From the NCBI GenBank assembly GCA_900557255.1, contig USSA01000019.1, forward strand, positions 1 through 31,240: a DNA stretch of 31,240 nt, written 5' to 3'. This document shows positions 8,971 through 22,704 of the stretch, in pieces. The position numbers were made by a program, and so were the translations under genes. Under the pieces are notes generated by a model. It searched no databases, was not told the DNA's origin, and worked only from the letters and a program-made list of their open reading frames with translations. Numbering within the stretch: position 1 is the stretch's first letter; each line of letters opens with the position of its first letter. The DNA comes from an uncultured Prevotella sp. GTDB lineage: Bacteria; Bacteroidota; Bacteroidia; Bacteroidales; Bacteroidaceae.

Positions 8971-9270
8971 TAAATTAAAAGTATTTTATATTAAACAGAC
9001 AAAAAGCAATAAAATAAAAATAATCAAGATATTAGTAGAGATACTGATCTATGGGTTTAACTTTTCTAAGAACTTGCATTTAAGGATACAAGATATTTGC
9101 AGGATACAAGTTACTTGCAATATATGAGATACTTGGTTTATGTTTATAGATAATGGAGAAATTACTCTCATAAAGAATTTGTTTTTAAGTTTAAACAAAA
9201 ATGCTAAAGTTAGATGTTAGTAATTATAAGTCCCCGTAGTGACCGTGAGGCTACTGCGGGGACGCTTTTT
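8971..9270 (+). ncRNA. Candidate stand-alone small RNA (about 300 nt)
   Basis: The stretch from 8784 to 9350 has no credible gene; the longest ATG frames on the + strand are about 10 codons (for example 9051 and 9202). It does hold a consensus promoter and, about 300 nt later, a strong GC-rich terminator. In between is AU-rich sequence with internal repeats: GGATACAAG at 9084-9092 and 9102-9110, and TTGCA at 9074, 9097 and 9115. CAAG/CTTG and TTGCA/TGCAA pairs could fold. I cannot match it to tmRNA, RNase P, SRP or a known riboswitch; a 6S-like role is possible but unsupported. The ends are estimates from promoter and terminator positions. Confidence 0.55.
9230..9270 (+). terminator. Strong terminator of the candidate small RNA
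   Basis: GTCCCCG pairs with CGGGGAC, and the stem continues inward through AGT/ACT with G-U pairs to CC/GG around a GTGA loop. Five T residues follow. No coding gene lies immediately upstream. Confidence 0.9.
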
Positions 9271-9350: not shown

Positions 9351-10160
9351 TTATAAGATTCTACCTGTAAGAGAGAACTTCAAAACAGGATAAACCTTCA
9401 AGTCTTTTACGAACTTAGAGAGATCATCCTCGCCAGCATCTTCCAATGCCTTATTGATATCTATCTCGTTACCATTCTGGTAAACCTTGAGCTTGCCCAT
9501 GAACTGGCAACCCAACTCAAAGCGGCAACCGATACGGTTCTTAGGAACCAGACGACCGAAACCTAAACCAAGGTATGGACGAACATTCTTGCAACGGATA
9601 TCGCCCTGAAGGTTATAGTTCTCATCGAGCTCCAAGTTGTAACCACCCAGGTTAGCTGATAAAGCCTTACGGAACTGACTCTCCAAGTTTGGATTATCTT
9701 TCAAGTGTCTATTAGAGAAGTCACGAAGTTCATCGCAAGAACCAGTAACCTCGGCTATCTTCTCACCCCCAATAGACAAACCAGCAGCGATAAAGAACTT
9801 GCTGCCACCACCGAATGGATAGAGATTAGCCTTTACATTAAAGGTTGTACGATCGAAAGCACCTTCTGCATGAATAGTTGCACTGGGTGGATAATTAACT
9901 CCAGATACTTGTGGCAAAGACCTAGTATCAACATCTACATCCAAATCACCAGACAGTTTGAAAGAAGGCATGATGTTCACACCTGCTTCAACCTCAAGGA
10001 AGTTAGTAACAGGAGCAGCCACACCAACACTAATACCCTCGGTACCTGCACCCACGTTAAGACCTACATGGTTAAAGATACCACGCTTGTAATCGCTCTG
10101 TGCCATTACGCTTCCAACACCAGCAAGCAGAAGAACTGCCATCATCATTAATTTCTTCAT
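9351..10160 (-). CDS. Outer-membrane beta-barrel protein
   Basis: A 269-residue secreted protein. It has a classical signal peptide (MKKLMMMAVLLLAGVGSVMA, cleavage before Gln21). Alternating hydrophobic/polar strands follow (GLNVGAGTEGISVGVAAPV, FLEVEAGVNIMPSF, FFIAAGLSIGG, VRPYLGLGFGRLV, CRFELGCQFMG), and it ends in a terminal strand FSLTGRIL. This is the layout of a small porin-like outer-membrane barrel. The function is unknown. It has its own promoter and terminator, so it is monocistronic. Confidence 0.82.
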   Translation of the reverse strand: MKKLMMMAVLLLAGVGSVMAQSDYKRGIFNHVGLNVGAGTEGISVGVAAPVTNFLEVEAGVNIMPSFKLSGDLDVDVDTRSLPQVSGVNYPPSATIHAEGAFDRTTFNVKANLYPFGGGSKFFIAAGLSIGGEKIAEVTGSCDELRDFSNRHLKDNPNLESQFRKALSANLGGYNLELDENYNLQGDIRCKNVRPYLGLGFGRLVPKNRIGCRFELGCQFMGKLKVYQNGNEIDINKALEDAGEDDLSKFVKDLKVYPVLKFSLTGRIL

Positions 10161-10222
10161 AATCGTTCTGTTTATAAGTTAAATATTAAACTCTTTTTTG
10201 CATATCGTTCGTAAATATGCTA

Positions 10223-10254
10223 CAAATATAAACAAAAGTTACAAGAAGAACAAA
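10223..10254 (-). promoter_or_regulatory. Promoter of the outer-membrane barrel gene
   Basis: On the - strand, TTTG (10251-10254), 20 bp, TATATTTG (10223-10230): a full match to the Bacteroidota consensus, about 63 bp upstream of the start codon. Confidence 0.8.
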
Positions 10255-10269
10255 TAATTACATAAAAAA

Positions 10270-10306
10270 TTAAGACTCTTTAGTACTTTAGCATACTAAA
10301 GAGCCC
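10270..10306 (-). terminator. Terminator downstream of the UvrD/PcrA helicase gene
   Basis: On the - strand, CTCTTTAGTA (10294-10303) and TACTAAAGAG (10276-10285) form a 10-bp stem with a short loop, followed by CTTAATTTTTT. It lies about 40 bp past the helicase stop. Confidence 0.8.
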
Positions 10307-10344
10307 TAATATATTATTAAAAACGCAAAATCAGACTACTAAAC

Positions 10345-17218: not shown

Positions 17219-17241
17219 TAACGATAGATAACTATCAGATA

Positions 17242-17527
17242 GGTTCACCCTCTTCACAGATGGAAGAGGACTTTATTTCATGTGCTCCACTTTGCTCCCC
17301 GCAAGTGGAGCATTTTAGATTCATGGGTGAATACTTGCCCCAAGCATTCACCTTTTCGGCTCCGGGGTGAACCCTAGTAAAAAGAACTTTGTATATACAG
17401 CGCATGCTAGAAATATAAGAGTCTATATTACAATGGGTTATAGGGTATATTTAACACATTATTAACGCTAAAGATTGGCATCGGGGTTCACCCTTCACCG
17501 ACTTCATCGCTAAGTGTTCACCCTAAC
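17242..17527. repeat. Repeated GGGTTCACCC dyads in the leader of the primase-helicase gene
   Basis: The 371-bp stretch 17219-17589 has no gene. It carries several copies of a 10-bp near-palindrome. GGTTCACCCT is at 17242-17251, the reverse form GGGTGAACCC is at 17365-17374, GGGTTCACCC is at 17484-17493 (followed by TTCACC), and GTTCACCCTA is at 17516-17525. A GGTGAAT/ATTCACC hairpin at 17326-17352 is followed by TTTT. The arrangement resembles operators or iterons upstream of a replication-type gene. It could also simply be an autoregulated promoter region. Confidence 0.65.
17283..17316 (+). terminator. Terminator after the 131-aa protein gene
   Basis: TGCTCCACTT (17283-17292) pairs with AAGTGGAGCA (17303-17312), followed by TTTT. 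A shorter hairpin, CCTCTTC/GAAGAGG, precedes it at 17249-17269. Confidence 0.8.
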
Positions 17528-17589
17528 TCTTACTCAGAGAACGTTGCAAACAACAGATTAATATATTAACAACAGACAATTTTAATCAA

Positions 17590-18180
17590 ATGGAAAAAGA
17601 ACAAAACAACAACTGCATGAATGGGACTGCCACGATGCCATCGTACTTCCCTTGTATAAAATCTTCTGAGAGCCATCCTCTCGTCGACTGGTTGTATCTC
17701 AAGAGCGTGATTACCTCTAGCTCTGAGCTACGAATGATGACCGAGACTTACCGCAAGCGCCTCGCCATCAGCAAGCAGTTTGCCGACCAGTACAAGCCTG
17801 AGATGCCTGCCATCACGGTTTCGGCACTCATGGACGGCTACGGCAGACAACTTGCCGACTTCCTCAAACCTACCTACATGCTCCAACTCGACTTCGACCA
17901 TGTGAAGAAGGAAGATATGGAGCAGCTTATCCTACTGGTGAGAGGCGACAGTCATACGATGGTTGAGTATATCACCGTGAGCGGCAGGGGATTCAGAGTG
18001 TTCTGCGCCTACCATCCTGTAGATGACGACGACATCAGTGTGCTCGAACTCTTCGATGCCGTGCTGCAGAAGGCTATGGCTTACTACACTCAGCTCCTGG
18101 GGATAGCTCCCGACAAGCAGTGTGTCGACATCACCCGATGCGCCGGTCTTGCCTACGACCCGGATGCCTATTTCCGTTAG
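17590..18180 (+). CDS. VirE-N/BT4734-like primase domain, N-terminal part, ended by in-frame TAG
   Basis: 196 residues corresponding to the N-terminal VirE-N (BT4734/BF3469-like) domain of a primase-helicase. Visible motifs are MLQLDFDHV (an acidic DxD pair, about residues 97-105), EYITVSGRGFRVFCAYHP, and CVDITRCAGLAYDPDAYF close to the stop. The next frame continues with no frameshift after the TAG at 18178-18180, and homologues as I recall them are one protein of about 700-800 residues. This is therefore very likely the 5' half of a single gene. If the TAG is real, this product could still fold as an isolated primase-like domain. Confidence 0.8.
   Translation: MEKEQNNNCMNGTATMPSYFPCIKSSESHPLVDWLYLKSVITSSSELRMMTETYRKRLAISKQFADQYKPEMPAITVSALMDGYGRQLADFLKPTYMLQLDFDHVKKEDMEQLILLVRGDSHTMVEYITVSGRGFRVFCAYHPVDDDDISVLELFDAVLQKAMAYYTQLLGIAPDKQCVDITRCAGLAYDPDAYFR
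18178..18180 (+). other. In-frame amber codon splitting the primase-helicase gene
   Basis: TAG sits between TTC CGT and GAT GCC. Both flanking frames are phase 1 and both read as the same family (YDPDAYFR-stop-DAEPFALGPKDL). One base change from a sense codon such as CAG would produce it. Options are a nonsense mutation, a sequencing error, or read-through. Confidence 0.85.
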
Positions 18181-19866
18181 GATGCCGAGCCTTTTGCCTT
18201 GGGACCGAAAGATCTGAAGCCCCTCTACACGAAGAAGGCATTGCAGGCGAAGTATTCTGCCAGGCGAAACGCCAAGGGAGGAAAGCGAAGCAGCAAGGTG
18301 AAAGAGAAGACGAAGTCAAGCGACAAGGGTGTGCCTACCATCGAGGAGGCAGCTTCCCATATCAAGGAACTGCTCGACCTGTGGGGCTATCGGTTCGAGC
18401 CTGAGCATCACAACGAGTATGTATGGCACTTTGCCGACATCTGCATCTACTATGGCATCCCGCAGGAAGAAGTTCTGCCCTACGCCGACCGTGAGTTTGG
18501 CACCAGCTACCAAGATACGGCTTCTGTCATCAAGTCTCGCTACAAACATCTGCACAAGTTTGGCATCTGGCATTTCTATCGCCAAGGCGAGGCCCGCAGC
18601 GGCAAGCCATCGGTAAGGGGCATCAAGCAGTGGCTACTCTGCCACTATCTGTTCCGCCGGAACGTGCTGACGGGATTTTACGAGGTGGAGAGCCGCTTCG
18701 TTTTAAACGGCAAGTATCCTGACTGGGTACGCATCGACGACAATATCGAGAACTCCATCTGGAGCGAGATGGATGAGTCGGGGCTGCATCTCTCGGAGAA
18801 GACCTTGCACAACATCATCAACAGCGACTTCAGCGAGCCGTTCGACCCCTTGGACGATTACCTGCGCAGTCTGCCGAAATGGAAGAAGGGGGAGGATCCC
18901 GACTATATCGACCAGCTCGCCGACCGCATCGAGGTGGAAAACCTGCCCTGCAACGAACATACGCAGAGCCTCTTCCGCTATTTCTTCAAGAAGTGGCTGG
19001 TGGCGATGGTAGTGGCATGGGTAACGCTGAAGGTGGTGAACCAGATGATACTCATCTTCGTGGGCAAGGGCGGCATCTTCAAGACCACGTTCTTCCACAT
19101 GCTGTTGCCCCCACAGTTGCGCCAGTACTTCCTCAACGACTCGACGGGCACCTATACCGACAAGGACTTCATGGAGGCTTTCAGCAGCAAGGCTCTGCTC
19201 TGTCTCGACGAGTTTGAGATGGTATTCGGCAAGAACCTGAGCGCCTTCAAGAGCAACATGACCAAGGTGACATTCTCCATACGCCGACCTTACGACAAGT
19301 ACCGTTCGGAGATGCCCCACCGCGGATCACTCTGCGGCACCACCAACAGCCAGCAGTTCATCACCGATGAGGAGAACCGCCGCTACTGTCCTTGGCTGGT
19401 AAAGAGCATCGAGAGTCCGATAGAGCACCCGATAGACTACGACCACGTGTTTGCCGAGGCAGTGGCACTGGGTCAGGAGGTGATGAGCCATCCTAAGGGC
19501 GAGCCCCTGGAGTGGACATACTGGTTGACGAGGGATGACATCGAACTGATGCGCAGTCACAACCGCCTCTTCATGGTAGCCAACTATGCCGAGGAGCAGA
19601 TACTCCGTTACTACCGGGTGCCGGAGCCAGATACGCCGCTACAGTTTATCAAGTTCCGCTACAGTGCCGAGATACTGGAGAGGATAGGTGTGAACCCTGC
19701 CCTTCGCCAGAACCTGAACAACCAGAACATCGGTAACGTGATGAAGCGTCTTGGATTCAAGAAGATTCACAAGAAGAACGGCAACGGCTGGGCTGTGATA
19801 GAGAAGGAAGGTAGCGAAATCAACAACGATGCCTTCATCGATCCTAACGATACCGTGGAGGATTAA
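18181..19866 (+). CDS. Primase-helicase C-terminal part (DUF3874/VirE-like ATPase)
   Basis: This is the continuation of the preceding frame; the first ATG after the stop is at 18199 and would give 555 residues. It contains a winged/linker region (VRGIKQWLLCHYLFRRNVLTG) and a P-loop ATPase core. Walker A is degenerate: VGKGGIFKTTFF, with FK in place of GK. Walker B is ALLCLDEFEMV, and a sensor-like GTTNSQQFITDEENRRYCPW follows. These features fit the VirE/D5-like helicase part of Bacteroidota primase-helicases. Without the primase half it would be a helicase only, unless the TAG is suppressed. It heads the cassette with DUF4248, HU and amidase genes. Confidence 0.8.
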   Translation, partial: DAEPFALGPKDLKPLYTKKALQAKYSARRNAKGGKRSSKVKEKTKSSDKGVPTIEEAASHIKELLDLWGYRFEPEHHNEYVWHFADICIYYGIPQEEVLPYADREFGTSYQDTASVIKSRYKHLHKFGIWHFYRQGEARSGKPSVRGIKQWLLCHYLFRRNVLTGFYEVESRFVLNGKYPDWVRIDDNIENSIWSEMDESGLHLSEKTLHNIINSDFSEPFDPLDDYLRSLPKWKKGEDPDYIDQLADRIEVENLPCNEHTQSLFRYFFKKWLVAMVVAWVTLKVVNQMILIFVGKGGIFKTTFFHMLLPPQLRQYFLNDSTGTYTDKDFMEAFSSKALLCLDEFEMVFGKNLSAFKSNMTKVTFSIRRPYDKYRSEMPHRGSLCGTTNSQQFITDEENRRYCPWLVKSIESPIEHPIDYDHVFAEAVALGQEVMSHPKGEPLEWTYWLTRDDIELMRSHNRLFMVANYAEEQILRYYRVPEPDTPLQFIKFRYSAEILERIGVNPALRQNLNNQNIGNVMKRLGFKKIHKKNGNGWAVIEKEGSEINNDAFIDPNDTVED

Positions 19867-19930
19867 GTATCTTGGTTACGACCACTAAGTATCATAGTTA
19901 CGATGGCTAAGTATCATATTTATGAATCAT
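19865..19930 (+). repeat. Three 22-bp tandem repeats after the primase-helicase gene
   Basis: Units start AAGTATC at 19865, 19887 and 19909 with an exact 22-bp period; the second unit reads AAGTATCATAGTTACGATGG plus CT. The first unit overlaps the stop codon of the helicase frame. The units are degenerate, more so toward the third. Confidence 0.75.
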
Positions 19931-19950
19931 AACCCTAATAGATATTTCTC

Positions 19951-20060
19951 TGCACGCGAATTACGTACTGTTTTTACTGAACATGAATATCTTATTGTTT
20001 TTTCGGAACACGAATTACCTATTGGGTTTACTGAACACGAATTGCACGAATTAAACGAAT
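19951..20060 (+). repeat. Three to four degenerate 27-bp tandem repeats
   Basis: Units of 27 bp begin near 19952, 19979 and 20006, with core GAACACGAATTACCTATTG and T-rich ends. The fourth (20033) merges into the 28-bp ATTCGTG-type element. An ATG frame at 19922-20062 reads through them as a 46-residue peptide with a nine-residue period F(T/S)EHE. It has no ribosome binding site and I regard it as repeat-derived. Confidence 0.65.
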
Positions 20061-20108
20061 AAGTGGCTTCAGAATGAAAGATTCGTGAGATTCGAGAGAT
20101 TCGTGTTC
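20033..20108. repeat. Inverted pair of 28-bp ATTCGTG-type repeats
   Basis: Left arm 20033-20060 begins GAACACGAATTGCACGAATT; right arm 20081-20108 ends GAGATTCGTGTTC and is its imperfect complement, with a 20-nt loop between. The arms have a 9-bp internal period (ATTCGTGnn). It is one of several copies confined to this cassette. Confidence 0.75.
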
Positions 20109-20141
20109 AACACTTAACATTCAACATTATAATTACCGTCA

Positions 20142-20351
20142 ATGGATTTACGAAGTTACACCAAGCAGGAGTTAGCCCTGCTCTATTTTCCGGATTCCGA
20201 CCCAGACGTGGCAAGAGCCCATCTGATGAGATGGATAGTAAGATGCACCCAGCTCTACGAGCAGTTGCAGAAGAGTGGATACAACAAGAGCTGCAAGGAG
20301 TTCAATCCCCTGCAAGTATCCTATATTTTCTTCCATTTGGGAGAACCCTGA
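20142..20351 (+). CDS. DUF4248 domain-containing protein
   Basis: A 69-residue protein beginning MDLRSYTKQELALLYFPDSD, with LMRWIVRCTQLYEQL and a C-terminal FNPLQVSYIFFHLGEP. This matches DUF4248, a short Bacteroidota family. The N-terminal YTKQELA..YFP looks like a helix-turn-helix lead, so a DNA-binding or regulatory role is possible but unproven. The family commonly occurs beside the VirE-type primase-helicase and HU-like genes, as here. Confidence 0.85.
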   Translation: MDLRSYTKQELALLYFPDSDPDVARAHLMRWIVRCTQLYEQLQKSGYNKSCKEFNPLQVSYIFFHLGEP

Positions 20352-20360
20352 TATTTATCA

Positions 20361-20405
20361 GTGATAATCGGTGAGTATCGGTGAGCAACAATGAGCATCG
20401 GTGAG
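20361..20405 (+). repeat. 10-bp phased direct repeats upstream of the HU-like gene
   Basis: About 4.5 copies of GTGAGNATCG at an exact 10-bp period (20361, 20371, 20381, 20391, 20401); the third is degenerate. The run ends at the -33 position of a -7 box at 20425-20432. One repeat per helical turn suggests cooperative protein binding on one DNA face. Confidence 0.65.
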
Positions 20406-20424
20406 TTGGGAAAATGAAATGTTG

Positions 20425-20432
20425 TATCTTTG
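20425..20432 (+). promoter_or_regulatory. -7 box of the HU-like gene
   Basis: TATCTTTG followed by CAATG is a full TAnnTTTG match 50 bp before the start codon. There is no clear TTTG at -33; the phased repeats occupy that position, as expected for an activator-dependent promoter. Confidence 0.65.
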
Positions 20433-20482
20433 CAATGTGATTCAGAAAGAAGAACATTAACCATTTAAACACTTAAAAACTT

Positions 20483-21016
20483 ATGTTGCTTTACGTACTA
20501 AAACTAAATCAGAACGCCAAGATGCCAGAGGCATACGGCAAGTATTACGCCTATCCAGTCATCACTCAGACGGTAGACATCGACGGCCTGGCCGAACACA
20601 TGGCTAGCCACAACACTCCTTTCTCTAAGGGAGCCATCAAGGGCATGATTACCGATATGGTATCGTGCATCAAGGAACTCACCTTGCAGGGTTTCGCTGT
20701 GAAGATTGACGACCTCGCCATCTTCTCCATCGGCATCCGCAACAAGGAGGGAGCCGCCTCAGAGAAGGAGTTCACCATCGCCAAGAACATCGACGGTTTC
20801 CGTCTCCGTGCTCGTGGCACCGGTGAGTTCAGCGCCAAGACCATCAACCTCGAAGCTACGCTGAAGAAGGCCTCTGCTCTGTTAGGTGATGGCACCACCC
20901 CGGATACCACCCCGGATACCGGGAAGGATACCGGAAAGGATACCCCTGGTGGTGACAACACCGACCAGGGCGGTAGCGGAACCACTGGAGAAGGAGGAGG
21001 CGACGGCTTAGAGTAG
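20483..21016 (+). CDS. HU-family DNA-binding protein with Gly/Thr/Asp-rich tail
   Basis: A 177-residue HU-like protein of the Bacteroidota HU-HIG type. The HU core covers about residues 1-125: ITQTVDIDGLAEHMASHNTPFSKGAIKGMITDMVSCIKELTLQG, then beta-arm segment KIDDLAIFSIGI and FRLRARGTGEFS. The C-terminal tail (about 134-177) is low complexity, with TPDT/GKDT units encoded by 12-bp DNA repeats near 20895-20945, and is probably disordered. It should bind DNA, perhaps at the nearby repeats. It lies between the DUF4248 and smalltalk genes and has its own -7 box. Confidence 0.88.
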   Translation: MLLYVLKLNQNAKMPEAYGKYYAYPVITQTVDIDGLAEHMASHNTPFSKGAIKGMITDMVSCIKELTLQGFAVKIDDLAIFSIGIRNKEGAASEKEFTIAKNIDGFRLRARGTGEFSAKTINLEATLKKASALLGDGTTPDTTPDTGKDTGKDTPGGDNTDQGGSGTTGEGGGDGLE

Positions 21017-21233
21017 CCCTACCCGCCTCGCATCTGAAACAAGAGAAAGCGCATCGGCAGGATGCAGTCCGGAGTAATCCGAGGGCCTATCAGGAATGAG
21101 TTTCATCACTCACCATTCAACATTGTCAAATCATCGCCCTGAACGGATACTTGCTCATCCTGCCCGCTTCCTTCTTGTCTTCCCACACTAATCACTAAAC
21201 ATTAATCACTAATTACACTAATCACTAACAAAA
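21017..21233 (+). other. Non-coding spacer between HU-like and smalltalk genes
   Basis: This stretch holds no gene. GGCAGGATG (21056-21064) and CATCCTGCC (21156-21164) are exact complements 91 bp apart and could close a structured RNA domain. Heptamer-like CACTAATCACTAA repeats follow at about 21185-21230, directly before the smalltalk start. Confidence 0.4.
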
Positions 21234-21326
21234 ATGAAAAAGGAAACAATCCAGAAAGTCATCAACTTCGTCATCACCGTCCTCACTGCCGTCCTCAGCT
21301 CCTTCTGTGTGCAGAGCTGCAAGTGA
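21234..21326 (+). CDS. Smalltalk protein (30 aa)
   Basis: The peptide starts MKKETIQKVINFVITVLTAV and ends FCVQSCK. It has two N-terminal lysines, one hydrophobic helix of about 20 residues and a C-terminal Cys-containing end. This is the pattern of the very short Bacteroidota family named smalltalk protein, which is found next to N-acetylmuramoyl-L-alanine amidase genes. The C-terminal QSC resembles a lipobox-like end, but modification is speculative. The position before the amidase supports the call. Function is unknown; a membrane or signalling peptide is possible. Confidence 0.8.
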   Translation: MKKETIQKVINFVITVLTAVLSSFCVQSCK

Positions 21327-21334
21327 TAGCGTCT

Positions 21335-21464
21335 GAACACGAATTACACGAATCGAACGAATCAATCTATTCAAAGGCCATATTCGTGCTATTCGAGAAA
21401 TTCGTGTTCAATTAAATATCTGTTCAAGCACGGAAAATTCGCGTCATTCGAGATATTCGTGTTC
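21335..21464. repeat. Cluster of 28-bp ATTCGTG-type repeats, left of the GxxExxY gene
   Basis: One copy in the GAACACGAATTACACGAATC orientation (21335-21362), then two in the ATTCGTG orientation (21382-21409 and 21437-21464) 55 bp apart. The outer copies form a hairpin. The cluster is homologous and parallel to the one at 21863-22049. Confidence 0.8.
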
Positions 21465-21471
21465 AGTTAAA

Positions 21472-21843
21472 TCAAAACACTTTGCGTTCGTATTCCAATC
21501 CGTCAGAGTGGCCAAAATTATAGAGAATACCGAGTTTAAAACCTGTAGCTTTGAGATAATTATATACTTGACTTCGATGGGAATCATTGAGTTCTGAAAC
21601 AGCTTTCAGTTCAATAATAATGTCACCATAACAGACAAAATCAGCTCGATAAGTCTGCTTTAGTTCATGTCCATCATAGAAGACTTTAAGTTCTTTCTCA
21701 CGTTCAAAGGGGATGCCTCGCTTAGCAAATTCAATAGCCAAGGCTTCCTGATAAACGGCTTCAAGGAATCCTGAGCCCAATACATTATATACATGCATTG
21801 CAGCCCCAGTGATGTTATATGATTCTTTACTACGGTATATCAT
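21472..21843 (-). CDS. GxxExxY family protein (PD-(D/E)xK nuclease-like)
   Basis: Start chosen at 21843 (MIYRSKESYNITGAAMHVYN); the frame extends to 21942, but that part translates the flanking repeat. The 123-residue protein has the family signature G25-F-L-E28-A-V-Y31. A nuclease-like core D68 (YRADF) with E78-L-K80 (IIIELKA) follows, resembling PD-(D/E)xK enzymes. The nucleolytic activity of this family is not established as far as I know. It is the only gene on the - strand in the cassette and is bracketed by homologous direct repeats, which suggests it was inserted between smalltalk and amidase. The neighbours are otherwise co-directional. Confidence 0.87.
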   Translation of the reverse strand: MIYRSKESYNITGAAMHVYNVLGSGFLEAVYQEALAIEFAKRGIPFEREKELKVFYDGHELKQTYRADFVCYGDIIIELKAVSELNDSHRSQVYNYLKATGFKLGILYNFGHSDGLEYERKVF

Positions 21844-21862
21844 AATCTCTATATATTTTTTT

Positions 21863-22049
21863 GAACACGAATTACACGAATCGAACGAATACATCCTGTT
21901 CAAGCACGGAAAATTCGTGCTATTCGAGATATTCGTGTTCAATTAAATATCTGTTCAAGACGGAAAATTCGTGTCATTCGAGAAATTCGTGTTCAGTTAA
22001 ATATCTATTCAAGCACGGAAAATTCGTGTCATTCGAGGAATTCGTGTTC
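21863..22049. repeat. Cluster of 28-bp ATTCGTG-type repeats, right of the GxxExxY gene
   Basis: One copy in the GAACACG orientation (21863-21890), then three in the ATTCGTG orientation (21913-21940, 21967-21994, 22022-22049) at 54-55 bp spacing. The linkers are themselves conserved (AGTTAAATATCT, CAAGCACGGAAA). This is a true 55-bp tandem repeat, parallel to the cluster at 21335-21464. Confidence 0.85.
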
Positions 22050-22079
22050 AGTTAAACCCTTTAAAATCCATAGAATCCA

Positions 22080-22514
22080 ATGAAGAATCAAAGAAAAATC
22101 GATTTGATCGTGGTACATTGCAGTGCCACACGTATTAACCAGGACTTCCCGGTAGAAGCCTTAGAAGTCTGCCACAAGGCCCGTGGTTTCCACTCCATCG
22201 GTTACCACTATTACATTACGAAGGATGGCGTGGTCTATCCCTGCCGTCCAGAAAGCGAGGAGGGTGCTCACGCCCGCCACTACAACGCCCATAGCATCGG
22301 AATCTGCTACGAGGGTGGTCTCGACGAGAAAGGCAAGCCTGCCGACACTCGCACTCCAGCCCAGAAAGCATCTCTGGAAGACCTCCTCTACAGTCTCGTC
22401 CTCGACTATCCCGATGCCGAGATCCTAGGTCATCGCGACCTTCCCTGGGTTCGCAAGAGCTGTCCTTGCTTCGATGTCAAGGAATGGCTGAAGGAAATCG
22501 ACTTCCATCTCTAG
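22080..22514 (+). CDS. N-acetylmuramoyl-L-alanine amidase (Amidase_2, T7-lysozyme-like)
   Basis: A 144-residue zinc amidase that cleaves the bond between muramic acid and the stem peptide. Zinc ligands are recognisable by comparison with T7 lysozyme: His13 (VVHCSAT), His118 (GHRDLP) and Cys128 (RKSCPC). GYHYYITKDG holds the conserved tyrosine region, and Lys126 matches the catalytic lysine. There is no signal peptide, as in phage-type amidases. It is usually the last gene of the VirE/HU/smalltalk cassette, as here, and is followed by a strong terminator. How it reaches its substrate is unknown; holin-like help from the smalltalk peptide is only a guess. Confidence 0.92.
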   Translation: MKNQRKIDLIVVHCSATRINQDFPVEALEVCHKARGFHSIGYHYYITKDGVVYPCRPESEEGAHARHYNAHSIGICYEGGLDEKGKPADTRTPAQKASLEDLLYSLVLDYPDAEILGHRDLPWVRKSCPCFDVKEWLKEIDFHL

Positions 22515-22536
22515 AAAGCCCGGACAGTTCCCAAAA

Positions 22537-22564
22537 ATTCGTGCTATTCGAGTTATTCGTGTTC
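22537..22564. repeat. Single ATTCGTG-type repeat after the amidase gene
   Basis: One 28-bp copy in the ATTCGTG orientation (ATTCGTGCTATTCGAGTTAT, then TCGTGTTC), the last in the cassette, just before the terminator. Confidence 0.75.
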
Positions 22565-22570
22565 AAAATC

Positions 22571-22616
22571 ATCCCAGCTTATAAGTCCTAAAAAGCTTAT
22601 GGGTTGGGATTTTTTC
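22571..22616 (+). terminator. Terminator at the end of the cassette
   Basis: ATCCCAGCTTATAAG (22571-22585) pairs with 22596-22610 with three G-U pairs, followed by TTTTTT. It separates the cassette from the convergent xse genes. Confidence 0.85.
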
Positions 22617-22704
22617 GTTCTCAAAAATGAGAATACCCATTGCTTGCAACGAAAAAGATCCGTGAGATCCATGTGCGAAAATTCAAGTTTCTGCTTATCG
22701 TAAA

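What the first reader, a model, noticed from the sequence alone, without database searches (positions are those of the whole stretch)
17219..22616. Self-contained Bacteroidota cassette: primase-helicase, DUF4248, HU-like, smalltalk, GxxExxY, amidase
The six gene types recur together in Bacteroidota genomes as I recall them, yet no function is established to my knowledge. The mix of replication-like (primase-helicase), DNA-architectural (HU, DUF4248), membrane-peptide and cell-wall-cleaving proteins resembles a reduced mobile or phage-derived element. An altruistic or lysis-type system, or a natural-product-release module, are alternatives. Own leader repeats, own internal repeat family and a strong terminator mark it as one unit against housekeeping neighbours.
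Basis: partly seen in the sequence, partly recalled or inferred. Interest (0 to 1): 0.75.

Follow-up and report, generated by a model that had tools for sequence, protein, structure and literature searches.

The report
Tiny nuclease gene with matching repeats
Inside a recurring gut-bacterial gene cassette sits a very small nuclease gene that, in most of the copies sampled, is framed by its own matching DNA repeats and is present or absent between close relatives, so it looks like an unrecognised minimal mobile element.

Summary
The genes are there, but they are two things, not one. (1) A five-gene Bacteroidales cassette: PrimPol/VapE-helicase, DUF4248, HU-HIG, smalltalk, phage-type amidase. 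It recurs in fixed order in Segatella/Prevotella genomes, with a leader and a terminator of its own. In this window an in-frame TAG cuts the primase-helicase. (2) GxxExxY and most of the "internal repeat family" are a separate insertion. The 95%-identical cassette of genome G001 has no GxxExxY and mostly another palindrome family in the same gaps; S. copri Indica has another GxxExxY (36% identical) and a third repeat type. Of 114 GxxExxY loci tested, 88 have matching repeats on both sides (67 inverted) against 9 of 208 control genes. The repeats are triple 7-nt units spaced 8-10 nt, different from gene to gene, and own flanks match far better than foreign ones. Both G001 copies sit between conserved genes (purM-prfA, thrS-infC) where a close relative has none. 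The predicted fold is Cas4-like, with the active-site residues present. Best reading: a minimal mobile element, or repeat-nuclease pair, that works like REP-RAYT with an unrelated nuclease. Architecture and presence/absence are shown; movement by the nuclease is inferred. My searches of the held library found no described link between this family and repeats.

The parts
17243..17522 (.). leader repeats: six [GA]TTCACC / GGTGAA[TC] heptamers upstream of the primase (iteron-like; role inferred)
   Evidence: starts 17243+, 17326-, 17346+, 17366-, 17486+, 17516+; five of the six at matching spots in G001 and Indica
17590..18180 (+). primase-helicase, N-terminal part: BT4734-like PrimPol domain, ends at in-frame TAG 18178-18180
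   Evidence: PF08800 E 6e-24; PADLOC PrimPol 9.5e-25
18181..19866 (+). primase-helicase, C-terminal part in the same frame: VapE-like SF3 helicase
   Evidence: PF05272 E 5.8e-25; phrog_1313 E 3.8e-40
20142..20351 (+). DUF4248 protein (69 aa, four helices predicted)
   Evidence: (PF14053 E 1.4e-27)
20483..21016 (+). HU-HIG DNA-binding protein with glycine-rich tail
   Evidence: PF18291 E 2.2e-10; TIGR01201, 47.6 bits, below its cut-off of 68.6
21234..21326 (+). smalltalk peptide, 30 aa
   Evidence: NF033879 E 1.5e-7; PF20096
22080..22514 (+). N-acetylmuramoyl-L-alanine amidase, phage-lysis type
   Evidence: PF01510 E 1.5e-20; phrog_822 E 3.6e-56
22571..22615 (+). terminator-like hairpin with T run at the cassette's right border
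   Evidence: read by eye; same in G001 and Indica (a second copy about 2 kb on)
21472..21843 (-). GxxExxY protein, 123 aa Cas4-like PD-(D/E)XK nuclease; active-site residues present
   Evidence: (PF13366 E 9.3e-42)
21329..22055 (.). GxxExxY with its repeat arms: segment that stands where G001 has about 140 nt with a palindrome of another type
20032..20060 (-). repeat arm (CACGAAT units)
   Evidence: I20
20081..20109 (+). repeat arm (ATTCGTG/ATTCGAG/ATTCGTG); palindrome with 20032-20060
21334..21362 (-). repeat arm
   Evidence: I12
21382..21410 (+). repeat arm; palindrome with 21334-21362
21437..21465 (+). repeat arm, tandem 55 nt from the previous one
   Evidence: D2
21862..21890 (-). repeat arm just upstream of the GxxExxY start codon
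21913..21941 (+). repeat arm; palindrome with 21862-21890
21967..21995 (+). repeat arm (tandem, 54 nt spacing)
22022..22050 (+). repeat arm (tandem, 55 nt spacing)
22537..22565 (+). repeat arm after the amidase; an arm of this type is there in G001 and Indica too

Best explanation
The window holds a five-gene Bacteroidales cassette into which an independent small repeat-nuclease element has been inserted. The element is a GxxExxY gene framed by arms made of three 7-nt units spaced 8-10 nt. GxxExxY is a minimal Cas4/RecB-like PD-(D/E)XK nuclease (shown by motif and predicted fold). Each copy carries its own arm sequence on both sides (shown for most loci tested). Inferred steps: the protein recognises its own arms, perhaps as hairpins or cruciforms; it cuts them or similar intergenic hairpins; transfer or repair copies the whole unit, or an arm-loop-arm palindrome without the gene, into another spacer. 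Palindromes without the gene would be the non-autonomous copies. The cassette itself is most likely a phage- or satellite-derived replication and lysis module kept on chromosomes; in this strain its primase-helicase is interrupted.
Against: No target-site duplication or clean junction was seen in any comparison. 26 of 114 loci have no flank match at the threshold. The ATYYGTG motif itself stands within 500 nt in only 17 of 90 genus and 1 of 30 phylum loci; the wider claim rests on the motif-free flank test. Genomes without GxxExxY also carry repeats: 6 of 29 in the genus, 10 of 74 in the phylum sample; 24 of 51 genus genomes with GxxExxY lack the pattern, which covers one unit family only. In G032 the commoner variant is not the one beside its fetched GxxExxY (6 ATCTGTG, 3 ATTCGTG). 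An ATTCGTG arm also remains in G001 and Indica, whose cassettes are otherwise of other types. One GxxExxY protein found no phage record, one DNA segment none, and two proteins found 8 of 72,556 plasmid records, so transfer between cells is not evident. Of the 8 plasmid-collection loci only 3 pass the threshold. No cutting or transposition has been measured.
Confidence: 0.6

Rival explanations
1. GxxExxY is a passenger: a selfish or homing-type nuclease gene that settles in palindromic repeats of other origin (spread by recombination or another enzyme), and the repeats do not depend on it.
For: Repeats occur in 6 of 29 genus and 10 of 74 phylum genomes without GxxExxY (different patterns). The thrS-infC insertion lies where the relative has a hairpin. 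GxxExxY stands inside a 54-55 nt tandem array in the window.
Against: Left and right arms match each other and differ between genes, and arm type follows protein similarity; in G001 two gene-less palindromes have the ends of the gene-bearing element.
Confidence: 0.2
2. One reading: all six genes form one reduced mobile or phage-derived element.
For: Five of the six recur together; amidase and helicase match phage families; location varies between relatives.
Against: GxxExxY is absent from 4 of the 5 other complete cassettes and unlike (36%) in the fifth; elsewhere it stands between purM-prfA, thrS-infC, behind radA and between fabD-fabG.
Confidence: 0.05
3. The five-gene cassette is a domesticated satellite-like module: PrimPol/helicase copies DNA from the GTTCACC leader, HU-HIG and DUF4248 bind it, and smalltalk plus amidase open the cell to release DNA. 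(About the cassette; compatible with the main reading.)
For: Lysis-type amidase, PrimPol plus SF3 helicase, iteron-like leader, conserved order.
Against: No integrase, capsid or packaging gene among the annotated neighbours of seven related loci, one of which has an IS1182 transposase about 3 kb away; those copies sit mostly among housekeeping genes; primase interrupted here; the leader heptamer is missing in iA622 and in the second G001 cassette.
Confidence: 0.3
4. The arms are only terminators or RNA stem-loops that insulate a foreign gene in an operon; nothing moves by them.
For: Arms lie close to start and stop (median gaps 31 and 26 nt, 61 loci) and can form hairpins.
Against: Of 208 control genes only 9 show matching flanks; arms are dispersed without the gene; units are sequence-matched, not just stable hairpins.
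Confidence: 0.1

Closest known systems
REP sequences / REPINs with RAYT (TnpA-REP); known from recall and the abstract starts
   Same: A single nuclease-type gene flanked by inverted palindromic repeats, with gene-less copies in intergenic spaces of the same genome.
   Different: RAYT is an HUH (Y1) transposase; GxxExxY is a PD-(D/E)XK Cas4-like nuclease. Units are triple 7-mers at 8-10 nt spacing that differ per gene.
Insertion sequences with MITEs
   Same: Inverted ends, internal gene, gene-less copies with the same ends, presence/absence at a site.
   Different: No DDE/HUH transposase profile, no target duplication seen, unit of 568 nt at the median with a gene of about 125 codons.
Cas4 / RecB-family nucleases
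   Same: Fold and D, ExK, QxxxY residues.
   Different: No four-cysteine cluster (one Cys in the window protein); not beside cas1/cas2 in the window.
GxxExxY family (TIGR04256, PF13366)
   Same: Full member.
   Different: The two papers found by name only mention it; no repeat link in the passages seen.
BT4734/BF3469 - HU - DUF4248 - amidase chromosomal loci of Bacteroidales
   Same: Same gene set (B. finegoldii).
   Different: Window copy has one operon order, an interrupted primase and an inserted GxxExxY.

Membership tests
GxxExxY (TIGR04256/PF13366) | profile match over curated cut-off | tested here: met
   144.2 bits against 35; 142.5 against 22
GxxExxY (TIGR04256/PF13366) | GxxExxY motif and D...ExK active site | tested here: met
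   G25 E28 Y31 D68 E78 K80 present in the window protein
REP-RAYT system | HUH/Y1 transposase gene | tested here: not met
   only PDDEXK_3 in the flanked gene
REP-RAYT system | gene flanked by inverted palindromic repeats | tested here: met
   (67 of 114 loci inverted)
REP-RAYT system | repeats dispersed in the genome without the gene | tested here: met
   G001: 20 hits, of which 2 flank a GxxExxY gene
REP-RAYT system | GTAG/CGTC tag at the repeat foot (title and abstract start of PMC3733652) | not tested
   -
Insertion sequence / MITE | terminal inverted repeats | tested here: met
   67 of 114 loci inverted
Insertion sequence / MITE | empty site in a close relative | tested here: met
   purM-prfA and thrS-infC, G001 against G067
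Insertion sequence / MITE | target-site duplication | tested here: inconclusive
   spacers too diverged to align at the junction
Insertion sequence / MITE | transposase activity | not testable with these tools
   needs experiment
Cas4 nucleases | RecB-type fold with D, ExK, QxxxY | tested here: met
Cas4 nucleases | four cysteines for an Fe-S cluster (recalled) | tested here: not met
   one Cys in the protein
Five-gene Bacteroidales cassette | prim-DUF4248-HU-smalltalk-amidase in this order | tested here: met
   five other complete loci
Five-gene Bacteroidales cassette | intact primase-helicase | tested here: not met
   TAG at 18178-18180; uninterrupted in L034 and L056
Integrative mobile element | integrase/recombinase and att sites | tested here: inconclusive
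   no recombinase among the eight proteins; genes beside other copies were not all profiled

The most novel reading that the evidence does not exclude
GxxExxY genes are among the smallest autonomous mobile elements: about 500-nt units in which a stand-alone Cas4-like nuclease, not a transposase, recognises its own triple-unit inverted ends and spreads them through intergenic hairpins. They would be the source of a large class of unassigned short palindromic repeats in Bacteroidota and perhaps other phyla, each nuclease lineage with its own unit sequence.
Probability: 0.4. Interest if true: 0.88.

Novelty: new variant of a known kind. Interest (0 to 1): 0.7.

Why it matters
GxxExxY is a very common protein family without a known function (two searches each scored about 8,000 candidates, the limit, and nearly all matched). 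A repeat partner gives it a testable substrate and could explain the origin of palindromic intergenic repeats that differ from strain to strain. If a Cas4-like nuclease alone can spread DNA, this bears on how Cas4 and other RecB-type nucleases came into mobile and CRISPR systems. For the cassette it removes a wrong member, so that functional guesses can rest on the five genes that do belong together.

Tried and rejected
Known RNA families: no Rfam match over the gathering score in the window; no tRNA found in the window. Rejected: GxxExxY as part of the cassette. Not supported: cassette as a defence system; PADLOC gives PrimPol and a reverse-transcriptase-associated primase profile for the N-terminal part, nothing for the other cassette proteins given, and a marginal hit (E 0.006) for GxxExxY (smalltalk was not given). 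Phage records: no DNA match for the GxxExxY segment, none for one GxxExxY protein. Gut-virome scaffolds carry DUF4248+HU (L247), DUF4248+amidase (L251) or amidase+HU (L248); they are unverified and without terminal overlap, so no evidence of a packaged form. DUF4248 fold search gave no match under E 3. Profile search of PDB sequences gave four weak matches, among them T7 endonuclease I (E 0.15). Literature: GxxExxY in 2 papers; PF13366/TIGR04256/PDDEXK_3 in 1 paper on Arctic microalgae, listing only; six literal repeat strings only in two animal papers, listing only; two combined-topic searches empty; cassette terms empty. The Cell Cycle 2017 paper of Burroughs and colleagues on HU clades is recalled only; one search for it did not bring it up.
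Full report
What is in the window. Five lie on the plus strand between 17590 and 22514: a BT4734-like PrimPol fused to a VapE-like helicase, DUF4248, HU-HIG, smalltalk and an Amidase_2 protein. GxxExxY lies on the minus strand (21472-21843, 123 aa). The primase-helicase frame is cut by TAG at 18178-18180; G001 reads 757 aa and S. copri Indica 758 aa without a stop. Whether this is a real lesion or a sequencing error cannot be told here.

The cassette. The nearest genome held (G001, 31% of the window's sampled words) has the same cassette beside xseB/xseA, 92-98% identical in the aligned pieces, but its left flank differs and proS lies 0.4 Mb away. In S. copri Indica the homologous block is window 17325-22619, apart from short repeat matches, and neither flank is shared within the fetched 10 kb. 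The complete order prim-DUF4248-HU-smalltalk-amidase was found in five fetched loci besides the window: L034 and L037 (both G001), L042 (G033), L056 (Indica), L058 (S. copri iAQ1173). Of 42 DUF4248 loci examined, many of them cut short, 24 also hold HU, 13 the primase-helicase, 5 all five genes (one search had left out 14 short loci, 11 of which repeat longer ones; the other 3 were added). DUF4248 matches occur in 16 of 60 sampled relatives, 7 of them in G001. In B. finegoldii five genes stand as two divergent halves, the smalltalk-sized one annotated only as hypothetical. Six further Bacteroidales records show prim with DUF4248, a DNA-binding protein and a glucosaminidase (L254), prim or a VapE-like protein with HU (L255, L258, L259), or prim alone (L256, L257). 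The leader carries six GTTCACC-type heptamers, 16/kb against 0.45/kb, five of them at matching spots in G001 and Indica; three in iAQ1173, one in G033, none in iA622 or the second G001 cassette. The amidase belongs to a phage lysis family (E 3.6e-56) and the helicase to phage helicases (E 3.8e-40). So the cassette is a recurring chromosomal unit with phage-like parts and unknown function; a replication-and-lysis role is the likeliest guess, not shown.

GxxExxY is a separate insertion. Between smalltalk and amidase the window has 727 nt (21329-22055) with GxxExxY and the repeat arms; G001 has about 140 nt there, a palindrome of another type, and no GxxExxY. In Indica the same gap holds a different GxxExxY (36% identical) with a third arm type. 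The gaps prim-DUF4248, DUF4248-HU and HU-smalltalk show the same swap: ATCTGTG-type palindromes in G001, ATCCGTG-type in Indica, ATTCGTG-type or none in the window. The swap is not total: G001 also has an ATTCGTG-like arm in the DUF4248-HU gap, and all three have one after the amidase. The G001 and Indica palindromes share inner hairpins but differ in the unit.

Flank test. In the genus 51 of 80 genomes had a GxxExxY match at E 0.001, 49 over the cut-off, 118 matches in all; I fetched 90 of them, best scoring first. In the phylum sample 74 of 148 genomes had a match, 73 over the cut-off; 30 loci were given, best scoring first. I compared the 350 nt upstream with the 350 nt downstream. Of the 120 loci five were too short and one a duplicate. 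Of 114, 67 match in inverted and 37 in direct orientation at score 15 or more, 88 in either. By group before removing the duplicate: 70 of 86 genus and 19 of 29 phylum loci. Controls: 9 of 208 ordinary genes from fetched genus and order loci, at least 750 nt from a GxxExxY; in the same loci, stretches 700-1050 nt away, inverted 0 of 112 and direct 3 of 112; near upstream against far downstream, inverted, 3 of 112. Own flank pairs score 15 or more in 59%, foreign pairs in 1.1%; in 56 of 68 positive loci the own partner is the best of 115; protein identity predicts flank likeness (Mantel rho 0.185, permutation p 0.001; at 70% identity or more 31% of pairs match, below 35% 0.1%, which still held the one duplicate). 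In the 61 inverted loci that could be measured the unit is 568 nt at the median from outer end to outer end (10-90%: 464-783) and the matched arm 36 nt; arm self-likeness peaks at shifts of 8-10 nt (0.32-0.35 against 0.25-0.31 at other shifts). In the 90 genus loci the ATYYGTG motif stands at 0.6-1.3/kb within 300 nt and at most 0.12/kb beyond; it is within 500 nt in 17 of 90 genus and 1 of 30 phylum loci, as most genes have another unit.

Presence and absence. In G001 one GxxExxY lies between purM and prfA: spacer 502 nt against 17 nt in G067, purM protein 100% identical, flanks 89-93% in DNA. Of the 30 loci fetched, 23 could be read across the spacer and only G001 had this GxxExxY; a divergent one could have been missed, as the test used one protein. 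The other lies between thrS and infC: 835 nt against 140 nt, flanks 93.5-94.9%, at the place of a hairpin in G067 (10 of 30 loci could be read, 1 with GxxExxY). G067 has one GxxExxY match only; by position and sequence it is the one in the Indica cassette, so G067 appears to be the Indica genome. Thus the three sites compared in this pair all differ. No target duplication could be read.

Dispersed copies. In the genus sample the repeat pattern occurs in 27 of 51 genomes with GxxExxY and 6 of 29 without (Fisher p 0.005), 326 against 18 copies, of which 153 are in one genome (G096, partly a 9-nt minisatellite); Spearman 0.43. In the phylum sample, with a wider pattern, 22 of 74 against 10 of 74 (p 0.027), and for 4 or more copies 10 against 0 (p 0.0014). 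These p-values ignore kinship between genomes. Variant counts over 11 chosen genomes, ATCTGTG then ATTCGTG: G079 14 and 1, as its GxxExxY flank predicts; G035 0 and 16, G096 11 and 69, G066 0 and 7, G002 1 and 3, as predicted; G032 6 and 3, against; G001 2 and 4, G067 1 and 2 (their flanks are mostly of other variants or spacing); G029, G031, G063 none. In G001 two gene-less palindromes have the same ends as the purM-prfA element.

Other phyla. In the plasmid collection 8 of 72,556 records hold a relative. At the threshold 3 of 8 loci pass (L181, L182, L184); L185 and L186 show units on both sides by eye but score below it; L179, L180 and L183 do not pass. In B. finegoldii (behind radA) and Sphingomonas (fabD-fabG) the gene sits tightly between genes of one direction.

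Reading. Shown: fold and residues, arms that match within and differ between loci, dispersal, presence/absence between close relatives. Inferred: that the protein recognises its arms, that it cuts hairpins, and that it moves the unit. It works like REP with RAYT but fails that membership, as the enzyme is unrelated. The passenger view remains the main rival.

Literature. Seen as passages only: PMC6231650 (deletion of a DUF4248 transcript in P. gingivalis; by its title hyperpigmentation and more tolerance to oxidative stress), PMC10434189, PMC10394638, PMC8934634, PMC12085832, PMC3733652. Seen in a search listing with abstract starts only: the REPIN/RAYT papers. None of the searches shows a described link between GxxExxY and repeats in the held library, which lacks most subscription papers and preprints.

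Mended after the first handing-in: primase lengths, heptamer positions, thrS-infC identity, the loci left out, the third flank control, the motif counts, and the remaining ATTCGTG arms in G001 and Indica.

Noticed in passing
L056 14393-16236 (S. copri Indica): An AAA-type ATPase (PADLOC PDC-M29A, E 3.8e-29) and a partner gene lie between two copies of the cassette's terminator region, like a candidate defence pair inserted at the cassette end.
   Followed up: partly
L056 8499-9017; G001 left flank: A divergent gene upstream of the primase is shared by G001 and Indica but missing in the window, where homology stops at 17325.
   Followed up: partly
window 18178-18180: In-frame TAG in the primase-helicase; the two closest relatives fetched are uninterrupted.
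   Followed up: partly
G096:C26:7204-7417: A minisatellite of 9-nt units (ATTCGTGTA) in a genome with 153 repeat-pattern hits and four GxxExxY matches.
   Followed up: no
window 9406-10325: A 920-nt stretch with a 269-aa gene is present in the window and absent at the same place in G001.
   Followed up: no
window 9025-9088: A 64-nt insertion relative to G001 whose first 9 nt (CAAGATATT) are repeated right behind it, like a small duplication or element.
   Followed up: no
L253, L256, L259 (B. finegoldii): Records typed as plasmids carry pflBA, proC, transketolase and the like, so they look like chromosome contigs labelled as plasmids.
   Followed up: no
L247, L248, L251: Unverified gut-virome scaffolds carry pairs of cassette genes.
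   Followed up: partly
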